A stretch of 39,154 nucleotides of DNA from assembly GCA_021806235.1 (NCBI GenBank), contig JAJZXU010000008.1, forward strand, positions 1 to 39,154, given 5' to 3'. The DNA is from Thermoplasmata archaeon. GTDB taxonomy: Archaea > Thermoplasmatota > Thermoplasmata > Thermoplasmatales > Thermoplasmataceae. The notes beneath the pieces were generated by a model. It was not told the DNA's origin. It did not search any database and saw nothing but the letters and a program-made list of their open reading frames with translations. The stretch's first letter is position 1, and every line of letters begins with the position of its first letter. The position numbers and the translations under genes are program-made. Of this stretch, positions 13,402 to 37,471 are shown piece after piece.

Positions 13402-14340
13402 ATGAGAATACTTGTAATTCTTCCGGCATTTTTACCTGTGGAAGATATAAAGAAAACAGTAAACCAGATAATGCCTGGAATAGAAATAAGGACGAATATG
13501 GATTTTGAGAAGGATGATGCTGAAGTTGTTGTGATAACCACATTTACACAGTTTGGGAAAAATGAAATAGATAAGTTTCCAAATTTAAAGTTTTTACAGG
13601 TTTCAAGCACGGGATACAACAATGTTGATGTAAAATATCTGAAAAGCAGGAATATTATACTGTCAAATATTCCCCGGGCAAATAAGGATGCTGTAGCCGA
13701 GCATGTAATTGCGATGGTTCTGGCATTTTTAAAGAATTTAATATTCTTTGATAGGGAAATACGTAACGGCAACTGGCCTGTGCTCACAAATTCAACCGAA
13801 TTAAATGGAAAAATCTTCGGAATTATCGGCATGGGTGCAATAGGAATTAAACTGGTACAGAGATTAATACCCTTTGGCCCGGGAATTATATACTATGATG
13901 TAAAGAGATTGCCGGCTGAGGATGAGGAGTTGTATGGATTAATATACATGGAACTTGATGATGTTATAAAGAGTTCAGATATACTATCAATACACCTGCC
14001 ACTGACAGAGGGTACATTAAACTTGTTTGATGATAAGCACTTCTCCATGATGAAGGATAATGCAATTTTTATAAATACATCCCGTGGAGAAATAATGGAT
14101 GAAAATGCACTGGTTAAGGCAATAAAAACAAAAAACATATTTGCGGGTATTGATGTATACAGTAAGGAGCCACCGGATTTTTCATCGGAACTATTTAAAC
14201 TGGGCAATGTAATATTCTCACCGCATATTGCCGGTGCAACCATTGAAAGCCAGCAGAGATTCCTGCAGGAAACTATAGGCAATTTAATAAAATACACACA
14301 GGGTTTAGATCCATTATACCAGATAAAAGAGGAATTGTAG
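13402..14340 (+). CDS. D-isomer-specific 2-hydroxyacid dehydrogenase
   Basis: A 312-residue NAD(P)-dependent enzyme interconverting a D-2-hydroxyacid and a 2-oxoacid. The Rossmann motif GIIGMGAIGIKLV is central. Catalytic Arg is in NTSRGEIMDE, Glu in IDVYSKEPPD, and His in SPHIAGAT. The frame opens at 13381 (MHTYYIIMRIL), but the ATG at 13402 starts the conserved beta strand (MRILVILPAF) and has a TATA-like element 24 nt before it. The stop TAG at 14338-14340 is 4 nt before the IscB-type element. Without that element the next gene (ThDP decarboxylase) would start almost immediately, so the two were probably one operon: oxidation of a hydroxyacid, then decarboxylation of the oxoacid. Glyoxylate/hydroxypyruvate or phosphoglycerate activity is an alternative. 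Confidence 0.9.
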   Translation: MRILVILPAFLPVEDIKKTVNQIMPGIEIRTNMDFEKDDAEVVVITTFTQFGKNEIDKFPNLKFLQVSSTGYNNVDVKYLKSRNIILSNIPRANKDAVAEHVIAMVLAFLKNLIFFDREIRNGNWPVLTNSTELNGKIFGIIGMGAIGIKLVQRLIPFGPGIIYYDVKRLPAEDEELYGLIYMELDDVIKSSDILSIHLPLTEGTLNLFDDKHFSMMKDNAIFINTSRGEIMDENALVKAIKTKNIFAGIDVYSKEPPDFSSELFKLGNVIFSPHIAGATIESQQRFLQETIGNLIKYTQGLDPLYQIKEEL

Positions 14341-14344
14341 TCAG

Positions 14345-14577
14345 CTACCCACGACTAAAGGCGTGGGCTTGTCCCGTGAGGGCAACGCAAGAGTTGATTA
14401 GGGGGCTTTGAAAATATGAAAGAAAAGCAGAAGTTAGATCGGAGAAATACATACACACCCACGGGTGCTCCACAAGCCCGTGGCAGCTGTGACCATGCAT
14501 TAAACAGAGAGGGAACTCTCAGTGTGCATGGCTTAAAAACCTCTTCTAACAACCCCGATGTGGACCTACAGTCAGGC
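14345..14577 (+). ncRNA. Putative omega RNA (IscB guide-RNA scaffold)
   Basis: In IscB loci the omega RNA is encoded between the transposon left end and iscB, with the guide derived from the flanking DNA at the 5' side. Here the segment holds successive stems: CCACGGG/CCCGTGG (about 14459-14484), an outer CCATGC/GCATGG enclosing GAGAG-GGAA-CTCTC (GNRA loop, about 14494-14532), and TACAGTC/GACTGTA running into the start of the frame (about 14567-14586). The second copy keeps the first stem with a G-U pair and the GAGAG-GAAA-CTCTC hairpin. Such preservation of pairing despite changes supports an RNA function. The guide would come from the end of the dehydrogenase gene (about 14325-14340). Transcription is inferred. 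Confidence 0.65.
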
Positions 14578-15053
14578 ATGACTGTACGGGACCTGAGAGT
14601 CCCCGTTTTAAACATGCGAAACCAACCACTAATGCCAACAACACCCGGATCCATAACAAAGATGAACCGCATTGCATCGGGAATAGAAAAAACCCATGCA
14701 AATGATGCATTTGTCATAGCCGGTGGATCAGTACAGAAGAGAACACCACCGTTTATGGTTTCCCAGAGAAGAAGGAACAACCGCTGCCTGCAATTGAACA
14801 GAAAGGGCTTTAAACCCTCTATACGGAAGAGAAGGTATTCATTGCAGCCAGGGGATACTGTTCTCTTCCAGAAAGAGGAGTGTAACGTAATGGGAATTCA
14901 TAACGTTGGAAAAAGTGTAATTATTAAAAAAGGTGAAAAAAGGATGGATGTAAGTGTAAAGAAAGTAGAGTTAAGAAGATATGGTAAAGGTTTGAAGTTC
15001 AACCTCCAATTCCTCCCACCCCTGAAGGGAGGGGGAGCCCTGGGGGCGGTCAG
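14345..15053 (+). mobile_element. IscB-type IS200/IS605-superfamily element, internally deleted (copy 1)
   Basis: A non-autonomous element of about 710 bp. The left end has a perfect hairpin (CCCACG...CGTGGG, about 14347-14367) preceded by TCAG (14341-14344). The right end has the imperfect palindrome CCCACCCCTgaAGGGAGGGG near 15016-15035 and again ends in TCAG (15050-15053). Between them lie an RNA-like scaffold and a mini-IscB frame. No TnpA transposase is present. A second copy occurs on the minus strand at 37014-37437. Both copies continue as TCAG-R-TGAA, so the exact right boundary could be 4-5 nt further. It lies between two genes of a catabolic operon. Confidence 0.8.
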
Positions 15054-15057
15054 ATGA
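14578..15057 (+). CDS. iscB: Mini-IscB: PLMP segment fused to RuvC-III and C-terminal domain
   Basis: The 159-residue frame starts RVPVLNMRNQPLMPTTPGS, which contains the PLMP motif (17-20) that names the IscB N-terminal domain. It then jumps straight to EKTHANDAFVIAGG (H40, D43), which fits RuvC-III, followed by QRRRNNRCLQLNRKGFKPS and the C-terminal SH3-like segment YSLQPGDTVLF...GVHN-type. RuvC-I, the bridge helix, RuvC-II and HNH are missing, yet the frame is intact. Full IscB is about 400-500 residues, so it cannot be a nuclease, but it might bind the RNA. The open frame extends upstream to 14416 through scaffold sequence; I prefer the ATG at 14578. Its TGA overlaps the ATG of the next gene. 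Confidence 0.75.
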   Translation: MTVRDLRVPVLNMRNQPLMPTTPGSITKMNRIASGIEKTHANDAFVIAGGSVQKRTPPFMVSQRRRNNRCLQLNRKGFKPSIRKRRYSLQPGDTVLFQKEECNVMGIHNVGKSVIIKKGEKRMDVSVKKVELRRYGKGLKFNLQFLPPLKGGGALGAVR

Positions 15058-16595
15058 AGGGCTATGAAATATTATATAATGCATTAAAGGAAAATAAAAT
15101 AGATTTTGTATCTGGCAATCCGGGAACAACCGAAATACCCATGCTGAGATCTATAAATAACTATTACCTGGCACTGCATGATTCAATTGCACTTGGGATG
15201 GCTGATGGTTATTCTCTATATAATTCAGAAGCTTCAATGGTTAATCTGCATACTATGCCGGGTATAGGAAATTCAATGGCATTTTTATTTACAGCAAAAA
15301 TGAACAGGTCCCCGGTAATAGTAACTGCAGGCCAGCAGGATACAAGGCATCTGGTTTATGATCCATTATTATCCGGAGATACACTGTCTATGGTTTCAGA
15401 TTTTGTTAAATATAAATACGAAATAAAAAGCCCCGAGGATATACCTGTAGCATTGAAAAGGGCAAGGGAAATTGCATTAACACCACCCATGGGCCCGGTA
15501 TTTTTATCATTTCCAATGGATGTAATGGATTACAGTGGGGAATACTATAAAAATTTCCACTCAGAACCGAATTATAATATCGCGGATGAAGATGCAATTA
15601 AAAATATATGTGAGAGAATAAACAGTGCAAAAAATCCGGCAATTGTTTTCGGTTATGAAATAGACCTGTACAATGCCTTTACTGAAGCAGAAGAGTTTGC
15701 AAAAAAACTGGGTGTTAAGGTTTATTCAGAGCCATTAGCATCGAGGTCCACATATAATACCAGCAATGATAATTATATGGGCGATCTGCTTCCGGCATCA
15801 ACCTTAATGAATTTAAATTTCCTCGAAAATGATTTAATCATATTCATTGGTGGTGATATTATATTTTATCCATATCTGCCGTCAAAGCCATTTATAGATA
15901 AGGATGTAATTTTTATCGGTACTGATTTATCACACAGGACTGGCGAATCATATTACATAAATCCTAAAATATTTTTAGAAAAGGCCAGAAATTTAATAAA
16001 TAAAAAGAGTAATTTTCACAGGGGGAAAGACCTGACATTTCCAAACAAAATAGCAAGGGAAAAACTTACAATGGGTGTTGATTATGTGTTATATAACGCA
16101 AAGAAAATTTTCGGTGATTATACTGTAGTTGATGAGGCAATTTCTGCAACAGAAAGTGTCAGATCAATGTTTGGCTATGGCCATAAAAAATATTTTACAG
16201 CAAAAACAGGCCAGTTAGGATGGGCAATGGCAGCATCTCTCGGCATAGCTGTAAAAAATAATAAAACCCTGGTTATTATCAGAGATGGTTCATTTATGTA
16301 TACGGTACAGAGCCTATGGACTGCAAAAAGATATAATCTGCCTGTAAAATTCCTGGTTTTAAACAATGGTGGCTACAACATTTTAAGGAGCTTTGCAGAT
16401 TCATATTATCCCGAAATGGAAAATAAGGATTATCTAACATTAAATCTGGACATTGAAAGCATTTCTAAGGGTTTTCATATAGATACAATGGTTGCATCAA
16501 ACGATTTAAATGAATTAAAATGGTTAAGGGAGGGAGATGAACCAAAAGTTTTAATTGTAAACACAGATAAAAAAATTGAAAAGATGTTTTTATAA
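15054..16595 (+). CDS. ThDP-dependent enzyme, benzoylformate decarboxylase-like
   Basis: A 513-residue three-domain ThDP enzyme (Pyr, middle, PP). It follows benzoylformate decarboxylase closely: GNPGTTE (21-27), NLHTMPGIGNSM with His66 (the BFDC His70 equivalent), and SPVIVTAGQQDTRH. The PP-domain ThDP-Mg motif reads IRDGSFMYTVQSLW...FLVLNN near the C-terminus. The glutamate that activates ThDP (usual HE/QEA motif) is replaced by Asp43 in ALHDSIALGMADGY, which may slow ylide formation or alter the reaction. It decarboxylates a 2-oxoacid to an aldehyde, which the downstream alcohol and aldehyde dehydrogenases could process. The ATG directly follows the right end of the IscB element, so its native promoter or operon link was disturbed or re-made by the insertion. 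Confidence 0.88.
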   Translation: MKGYEILYNALKENKIDFVSGNPGTTEIPMLRSINNYYLALHDSIALGMADGYSLYNSEASMVNLHTMPGIGNSMAFLFTAKMNRSPVIVTAGQQDTRHLVYDPLLSGDTLSMVSDFVKYKYEIKSPEDIPVALKRAREIALTPPMGPVFLSFPMDVMDYSGEYYKNFHSEPNYNIADEDAIKNICERINSAKNPAIVFGYEIDLYNAFTEAEEFAKKLGVKVYSEPLASRSTYNTSNDNYMGDLLPASTLMNLNFLENDLIIFIGGDIIFYPYLPSKPFIDKDVIFIGTDLSHRTGESYYINPKIFLEKARNLINKKSNFHRGKDLTFPNKIAREKLTMGVDYVLYNAKKIFGDYTVVDEAISATESVRSMFGYGHKKYFTAKTGQLGWAMAASLGIAVKNNKTLVIIRDGSFMYTVQSLWTAKRYNLPVKFLVLNNGGYNILRSFADSYYPEMENKDYLTLNLDIESISKGFHIDTMVASNDLNELKWLREGDEPKVLIVNTDKKIEKMFL

Positions 16596-36780: not shown

Positions 36781-37017
36781 CTACTTATCAGTATTCCTTC
36801 CTAAATACACTAATTTTGATTTCACAGGTTCTGTCTGATCAAGTTCAGGAACTTTGCATTCACATTGCCACTTGCAATCCACGGTGATTACATGCCCGGA
36901 TGGCCAGTGTGGAAAGTTTAGGAGCATGCTTCTGGTAATGTGATGCAACCATAATGAATCTTTCATAGCCAGTTGATGCCCACAATTTTTACATACACCA
37001 AAATTTAATTTTTTCAC
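36781..37017 (-). CDS. Cys-rich small protein (possible zinc ribbon) inside the inserted DNA
   Basis: A 78-residue frame from a GTG at 37017: VKKLNFGVCKNCGHQLAMKD, then five histidines, then DCKWQCECKVPELD. Cysteines at 9, 12, 48, 52 and 54 could hold zinc. It begins exactly at the right end of the IscB-derived element (TCAG then GTG), and the longer frame from the ATG at 37041 reads through that end. It lies within the DNA that splits vapC, so it could be cargo of an insertion or a captured gene. No family recognised. Confidence 0.45.
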   Translation of the reverse strand: MKKLNFGVCKNCGHQLAMKDSLWLHHITRSMLLNFPHWPSGHVITVDCKWQCECKVPELDQTEPVKSKLVYLGRNTDK

Positions 37018-37437
37018 CTGATTATCTCCAAGGCTCCCCATCCCTTCAGGGGTGGGAGGAATTGGAGGTTAAAAATCAACCCGTTGCTATACTTTCTTAT
37101 CTTTACCTTTCTTATAATTGCATCCATATTTTTTCACCTTTATTTAAAATAAAAACCAGCAAATCGGCTTTAAGCCCCCCTGCTGACCGGGGTAGGCCCA
37201 CATCGGGATTGTTAGAAGGGGTTTTTAAACCTGGCACACTGAGAGTTTCCTCTCTGTTTAATGACTTTAATACCCCATTCTGGTGCGGGTCACAGTTGCC
37301 ACAGGCTTGTGGAGCACCCGTGGGTGTGTATGTATTTCTCCGATCTAACTTCTGCTTTTCTTTCATATTTTCAAAGCCCCCTGAGCAACTCTTGCGTTGC
37401 CTTCACGGAACAATCCCACGGCTTTAGTCATGGGTAG
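37014..37437 (-). mobile_element. IscB-derived element without nuclease (copy 2), MITE-like
   Basis: About 420 bp. The left end hairpin (CCCATG...CGTGGG, 37434-37414) is followed by GGCAACGCAAGAGTTG and about 90 nt almost identical to copy 1. The right end palindrome CCCACCCCTgaAGGGATGGGG ends near 37035, then TCAG. Only the last 37 codons of the IscB C-terminus survive (37127-37014, FNLQFLPPLKGWGA shared with copy 1). It interrupts vapC, together with the small Cys-rich ORF. It has no transposase, so it would need TnpA in trans. Confidence 0.75.
37128..37437 (-). ncRNA. Putative omega RNA scaffold (copy 2)
   Basis: Homologous to 14345-14577 (plus strand). Preserved stems: CCACGGG/CCTGTGG (one G-U relative to copy 1) and GAGAG-GAAA-CTCTC with a GNRA loop. 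It differs 3' of this: CCCCGG...GGGGGG and the palindrome GGCTTaAAGCC replace the TACAGTC/GACTGTA stem of copy 1. If transcribed from vapC into the element, the guide would be the flanking end of the vapC N-terminal part (about 37440-37455, complement). Expression unproven. Confidence 0.55.
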
Positions 37438-37471
37438 TTAACGCACTTTACCTCTTCGCTGATAACTTAAC

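What the first reader, a model, noticed from the sequence alone, without database searches (positions are those of the whole stretch)
14341..15060. Internally deleted IscB (PLMP joined to RuvC-III) kept as an open frame
Seen: PLMP motif (NMRNQPLMPTT) followed without a break by EKTHANDAFVIAGG (RuvC-III like) and the IscB C-terminal block, giving 159 residues with no stop, flanked by a hairpin left end and a palindromic right end. Known: IscB carries PLMP, RuvC-I to III, bridge helix and HNH, and is RNA-guided. Inference: this mini-protein has lost its nuclease but may still bind RNA, giving a non-cutting OMEGA unit. The deletion is precisely in frame, which would be a coincidence if there were no selection.
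Basis: partly seen in the sequence, partly recalled or inferred. Interest (0 to 1): 0.75.

Follow-up and report, generated by a model that had tools for sequence, protein, structure and literature searches.

The report
Gutted IscB transposon keeping guide RNA
This is a shortened, non-autonomous copy of an archaeal IscB "jumping gene" that lost its nuclease in a deletion but kept its ends and its guide RNA; the leftover open frame is most likely a passenger, not a new protein.

Summary
An open frame (159 aa, 14578-15054; 213 aa from 14416) joins the IscB PLMP motif directly to RuvC-III and the C-terminal TAM-interacting (TI) region, between a hairpin left end and a palindromic right end. The element is 14340-15053, inserted without target duplication directly before the next gene's ATG; four orthologous sites in relatives are empty.

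What is intact is the omega RNA: Rfam HEARO, 118.9 bits, the best of ten copies in this genome. The protein keeps about 20 residues of the PLMP domain, RuvC-III and the TI region. In the AF2 model only the TI barrel folds. The junction lies at a short in-phase repeat (Thr-Thr-Pro on both sides), so an in-frame deletion needs no selection. A 90%-identical copy elsewhere shares it by descent. The genome holds one assembled full-length IscB and other derivatives, some open, some frameshifted or stopped. Low dN/dS between the same-junction copies (0.15) reflects mosaicism with other copies; private changes match those of broken copies.

Best reading: a PATE-like non-autonomous derivative of an IS200/IS605-type IscB element, whose omega RNA could serve the full-length IscB in trans.

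The parts
14340..15053 (+). whole element: non-autonomous, internally deleted IscB/HEARO element
   Evidence: boundaries from empty sites in G002 (two contigs), G003 and G006 and alignment of the copies
14340..14569 (+). omega RNA scaffold (HEARO, RF02033), complete 1-211 of 211
   Evidence: 118.9 bits, E 5e-24, gathering score 83; best of 10 copies in the genome
14347..14367 (+). left-end hairpin CCCACG-ACTAAAGG-CGTGGG, part of HEARO
   Evidence: sequence; HEARO alignment
14324..14339 (+). expected guide (16 nt of left flank just 5' of the omega RNA); its target would be the empty site, followed by TAM ATGA
   Evidence: inference from IscB biology (16-nt guide at the 5' end, PMC9640706); empty-site layout; no exact copy of guide end + ATGA in the genome
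14578..14640 (+). start of the IscB frame with PLMP motif (about 20 residues)
14629..14646 (+). deletion junction around codons ACA ACA CCC (Thr-Thr-Pro); 777 nt missing relative to L032, 720 relative to L089 (which has small in-frame deletions of its own)
14647..14727 (+). RuvC-III remnant (EKTHANDAFVIAGG)
14728..15054 (+). C-terminal WED/TAM-interacting region; SH3-like barrel predicted at about residues 90-135 of the 159-aa frame
   Evidence: assignment to the TI domain by position, after PMC9640706
15012..15032 (+). right-end palindrome CCTCCC / GGGAGG
15042..15053 (+). Shine-Dalgarno-like right terminus (GGGGG..CAG; family consensus GGAGG..CAG) abutting the ATG of the next gene
15054..16595 (+). 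downstream gene (TPP enzyme, benzoylformate decarboxylase-like); insertion target ATGA at its start codon
37013..37442 (-). second, shorter derivative of the same family in the window (C28b), junction ILNK|GEK followed by a 1-nt frameshift

Best explanation
It is a non-autonomous deletion derivative (PATE-like) of an IscB-carrying IS200/IS605-type element in a Thermoplasmata archaeon. A core deletion between two short in-phase repeats removed most of the PLMP domain, RuvC-I, bridge helix, RuvC-II and HNH, and left both ends, the complete omega RNA and a fused open frame. The shortened form was later copied to another locus, presumably by a Y1 transposase in trans (inferred). The fused frame is most likely a passenger. 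The retained omega RNA, with its guide taken from the left flank, could be used in trans by the full-length IscB of the same genome to cut empty sites (guide + ATGA) and so help keep the element in place (inferred, not shown).
For: Complete HEARO hit of 118.9 bits; some 20 family members in one genome with different deletions; a copy with the identical junction at an unrelated locus (L031); a full-length IscB with RuvC and HNH motifs (L032); seven intact Y1 transposase genes; four empty sites in three relatives with no target duplication; an in-phase short repeat at the junction; another deletion (C15b/G2b) shared between different loci of two species, so deletion derivatives spread; only the TI barrel folds in AF2; Haloquadratum PATEs arise from IS605-type elements by repeat-mediated core deletion (PMC3119063).
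Against: The fused frame is free of stops in both same-junction copies, and C-terminal dN/dS between them is 0.15; private changes include somewhat more synonymous ones than a neutral null (P about 0.02). There is no evidence of transcription, omega RNA processing or transposition in trans. Which Y1 transposase recognises these ends was not tested. The repeat at the junction is imperfect (about 7 of 10 bases against sampled parents).
Confidence: 0.8

Rival explanations
1. A functional non-cutting OMEGA unit: the 159-aa protein binds its own omega RNA and guide, occupying targets without cutting.
For: omega RNA intact and adjacent; frame open in both same-junction copies; low C-terminal dN/dS.
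Against: Most of the PLMP domain, the bridge helix and the RuvC core are absent; published structures place omega RNA and heteroduplex contacts there (PMC9640706, PMC9581776); N half of low confidence in AF2; private W-to-C and L-to-P changes in the window copy.
Confidence: 0.04
2. The truncated C-terminal protein (TI barrel) is retained as a small DNA-binding regulator or competitor that recognises the TAM/insertion motif ATGA, for example damping full-length IscB or transposition.
For: Three different junctions in the genome (C28/C23, C8, C10) keep an open fused frame ending in a complete TI region; the barrel is the only confidently folded part; slight excess of synonymous private changes.
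Against: Other derivatives are frameshifted or stopped (C15, C28b, C15b, C5); private changes are not different from those of broken copies; the end of the TI region overlaps the right end, which must be kept for mobility anyway.
Confidence: 0.07
3. A simple dying pseudogene with no activity of any part, RNA included.
For: Nuclease destroyed; many degraded relatives in this genome and in related ones.
Against: Complete HEARO with the best score in the genome, intact ends, and a second locus with the same deleted form, so it was copied after the deletion.
Confidence: 0.09

Closest known systems
IscB / HEARO OMEGA elements (ISC, IS200/IS605 superfamily)
   Same: omega RNA of the HEARO family 5' of the IscB frame, PLMP and RuvC-III motifs, C-terminal TI region, ATGA at the right flank (NTGA/ATGA TAMs known for IsrB, PMC9581776)
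   Different: lacks most of PLMP, RuvC-I, bridge helix, RuvC-II and HNH; cannot be an active nuclease
PATEs (palindrome-associated transposable elements) of haloarchaea
   Same: no terminal inverted repeats, near-terminal palindromes, no target duplication, core lost by deletion, multiple copies (PMC3119063)
   Different: here the parent carries IscB rather than TnpB, and a complete omega RNA is kept inside
IsrB
   Same: an IscB relative without HNH, with an NTGA-type TAM
   Different: IsrB keeps a full PLMP domain, RuvC and bridge helix and nicks DNA; this frame does not
TldR (nuclease-dead TnpB exaptations; own knowledge and PMC13418256 abstract)
   Same: nuclease-dead OMEGA-type protein next to a guide RNA
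   Different: TldR keeps an RNA-guided fold outside a transposon; here the RNA-binding core is deleted and the transposon ends are intact

Membership tests
IscB nuclease | complete PLMP domain (about 50 residues) | tested here: not met
   only the first strand and PLMP motif, about 20 residues, remain
IscB nuclease | RuvC-I, bridge helix, RuvC-II and HNH | tested here: not met
   absent; 259 codons deleted relative to L032
IscB nuclease | RuvC-III and C-terminal TI region | tested here: met
   83% identity to L032 residues 344-481
IscB/HEARO element | omega RNA (HEARO) immediately upstream of the frame | tested here: met
   RF02033 118.9 bits over the full model
PATE-like non-autonomous IS200/IS605 element | subterminal palindromes, no terminal inverted repeats, no target duplication | tested here: met
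   ends and four empty sites
PATE-like non-autonomous IS200/IS605 element | no transposase gene, several copies, derived by core deletion | tested here: met
PATE-like non-autonomous IS200/IS605 element | mobilised in trans by a Y1 transposase that binds these ends | not testable with these tools
   Y1 transposases are present; recognition of these ends not tested
trans-acting omega RNA locus | RNA expressed and loaded into a full-length IscB | not testable with these tools
   full-length IscB present; no expression data
TldR-like exapted regulator | RNA-guided fold kept, transposon ends lost, conserved genomic setting | tested here: not met
   ends intact, fold deleted, and the setting differs between the two same-junction copies

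The most novel reading that the evidence does not exclude
Independent in-frame core deletions in one genome repeatedly leave a small PLMP-TI or TI protein next to an intact omega RNA, and this small TAM-binding protein is kept as a regulator of IscB cutting or of transposition, a counterpart of the repressors made by deleted copies of other transposons.
Probability: 0.08. Interest if true: 0.65.

Novelty: new member of a known kind. Interest (0 to 1): 0.33.

Why it matters
It gives a clean natural series (full-length, partly deleted, deleted but open, broken) of one IscB family in one archaeal genome, with empty sites in relatives. A complete omega RNA above the family threshold survives in at least four deletion derivatives (C28, C23, C8, C10), so the idea that one IscB serves many omega RNAs with different guides in trans becomes directly testable. 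It also shows how easily an in-frame fusion can be mistaken for a selected mini-protein.

Tried and rejected
Pairwise dN/dS between the two same-junction copies (0.15) looked like strong selection on the mini-protein; rejected because 49 of 73 differences between them have both states present in other copies, so most of the divergence comes from exchange with, or inheritance from, coding copies, and because private changes match those of broken copies. Absence of stops: under neutrality the chance of none is about 0.4. Preference for in-frame junctions across copies: the survey shows both kinds, and its low-identity cases are not reliable enough for a test. PDB sequence search with the 159 aa: no significant hit. 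Foldseek: generic SH3/Tudor-like barrels, an IscB chain (9nvu) at rank 24, none below E 0.001. Guide end + ATGA elsewhere in the genome: only chance-level matches. The frame upstream of 14578 (14416-14577) lies in the omega RNA and shows no clear codon constraint (dN/dS 0.4-3), so it is not counted as protein. Two paper searches failed on syntax; one search found nothing on HEARO insertion at start codons.

Full report
Observation. The extra 54 residues lie in the omega RNA and show no clear codon constraint. The frame joins the PLMP motif to the sequence just before RuvC-III. In the same genome a full-length IscB of 481 aa (L032, contig C31) matches on both sides, and 259 codons of it are missing here. 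The full-length copy keeps the expected RuvC and HNH motifs by eye and matches solved IscB structures.

Element boundaries. Four orthologous sites in relatives of the same genus (two contigs of G002, one each of G003 and G006) lack the element; three read ...TATAATGAAGG and one ...CATCAATGAAGG. The element is therefore 14340-15053, with no target duplication. Its first base G turns what was probably an overlapping TAATG stop-start (as in three of the empty sites) into a TAG stop for the upstream gene, and its last bases carry a Shine-Dalgarno-like GGNGG before the ATG of the downstream gene.

What is intact. The HEARO model (RF02033, the IscB omega RNA) matches 14340-14569 end to end with 118.9 bits, the best of ten hits in this genome and second best of 34 in the family. 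The ends are intact. The protein is not: it keeps about 20 residues of PLMP, RuvC-III and the C-terminal TI region. AlphaFold2 with 17 sequences gives mean pLDDT 60 and pTM 0.37, with confidence around 90 only over about residues 90-135; that barrel resembles SH3/Tudor-like folds, and IscB appears among the matches only weakly.

Why in frame. Against sampled full-length copies the breakpoint falls on codons for Thr-Thr-Pro (or Thr-Thr-Leu) on both sides, in the same phase. Recombination between such repeats gives an in-frame fusion without selection. By my reading of the alignment, C10 joins at an Arg-(Ser/Thr)-Pro repeat in the same phase, and C15 at a Lys-rich stretch. Of the derivatives in this genome, C28/C23, C8 and C10 remain open, while C15 (frameshift), C28b (frameshift after the junction), C15b (out of frame, stops) and C5 (stop) are broken. 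Further in-frame and out-of-frame cases occur in relatives. The frame is thus not kept as a rule.

The second copy. C23 (L031) has exactly the same junction at an unrelated locus and is 90% identical. So the deleted form was copied, by transposition or by conversion of another copy; it is not an independent occurrence. C15b in this genome and G2b in G002 share another junction at different loci, so derivatives spread in general.

Selection test. C-terminal dN/dS between C28 and C23 is 0.15. But of 73 differences, 49 have both states present in other copies: the two are mosaics of older variation that arose largely in coding copies. Counting private changes only, C28+C23 have 12 synonymous and 12 replacement changes, broken copies C15+C5 have 7 and 8 (Fisher p = 1.0), and full-length C31 has 6 and 1. 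A neutral null gives about 29% synonymous, so a slight excess remains (P about 0.02), but it is of similar size in broken copies and may come from unsampled donors. The chance of no stop under neutrality is about 0.4. Selection on the mini-protein is neither shown nor strictly excluded.

Mechanism. Shown: deletion derivative, complete omega RNA, intact ends, occupied versus empty sites, presence of one assembled full-length IscB (others may be hidden at contig ends) and of Y1 transposases. Inferred: mobilisation by a Y1 transposase in trans; use of the omega RNA by full-length IscB in trans, with the left flank as guide and ATGA as TAM, so that empty alleles are cut and refilled. ATGA is among the cleavable TAMs of the relative IsrB (PMC9581776), and the guide at the 5' end of the omega RNA is established for IscB (PMC9640706). 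From my own knowledge, not tested here: trans-acting omega RNA loci have been described for a Ktedonobacter IscB, and HEARO elements have been reported next to ATGA/GTGA.

Known kinds. The best fit is a PATE-like derivative. Haloquadratum PATEs were described as IS605-type transposons that lost their core by repeat-mediated deletion (PMC3119063). The IscB parent and the retained omega RNA are the differences. It is not a working IscB, not an IsrB and not a TldR-like regulator.

Host. The window's genome is of the same genus as G002, whose IscB contig has the same length as JAJZZE010000045.1 (Thermoplasmata archaeon TL2-1.bin13). The host is therefore taken to be a Thermoplasmata archaeon.

Noticed in passing
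15042-15056 and the right ends of L031-L050, L089-L107, L146-L165: Right ends of the family sit directly on start codons: 32 of 36 located ends abut an ATG/GTG opening a frame of at least 80 aa, with GGNGG 8-12 bases before it (the search pattern itself required an SD-like motif); in the window only 10 of 484 ATGA sites are first-ATG starts of frames of 100 aa or more. The element seems to replace the downstream gene's ribosome-binding site.
   Followed up: partly
14340 and the left ends of L031, L034, L035, L049: The left end supplies a stop to the upstream gene: TA+G in the window copy; in four other copies the upstream frame reads into the element and ends in ...THD followed by TAA.
   Followed up: partly
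L034 (C15) and L091 (G002): The same insertion site before a DHH-family gene holds different derivatives in two species (1040 bp and 455 bp), which suggests replacement or re-insertion at the same site.
   Followed up: no
37013-37442 (-): Second derivative of the family in the window; it lost the PLMP motif, has an in-frame junction and then a 1-nt frameshift.
   Followed up: partly
L042:615-688 (C34): A derivative holds a match to group II intron RF00029 (49.7 bits) between its left and right parts.
   Followed up: no
G000 contigs C26, C27 (start) and C10, C2 (end): Contigs break inside IscB copies (residue 128 or 404), so further full-length copies may be hidden by the assembly.
   Followed up: no
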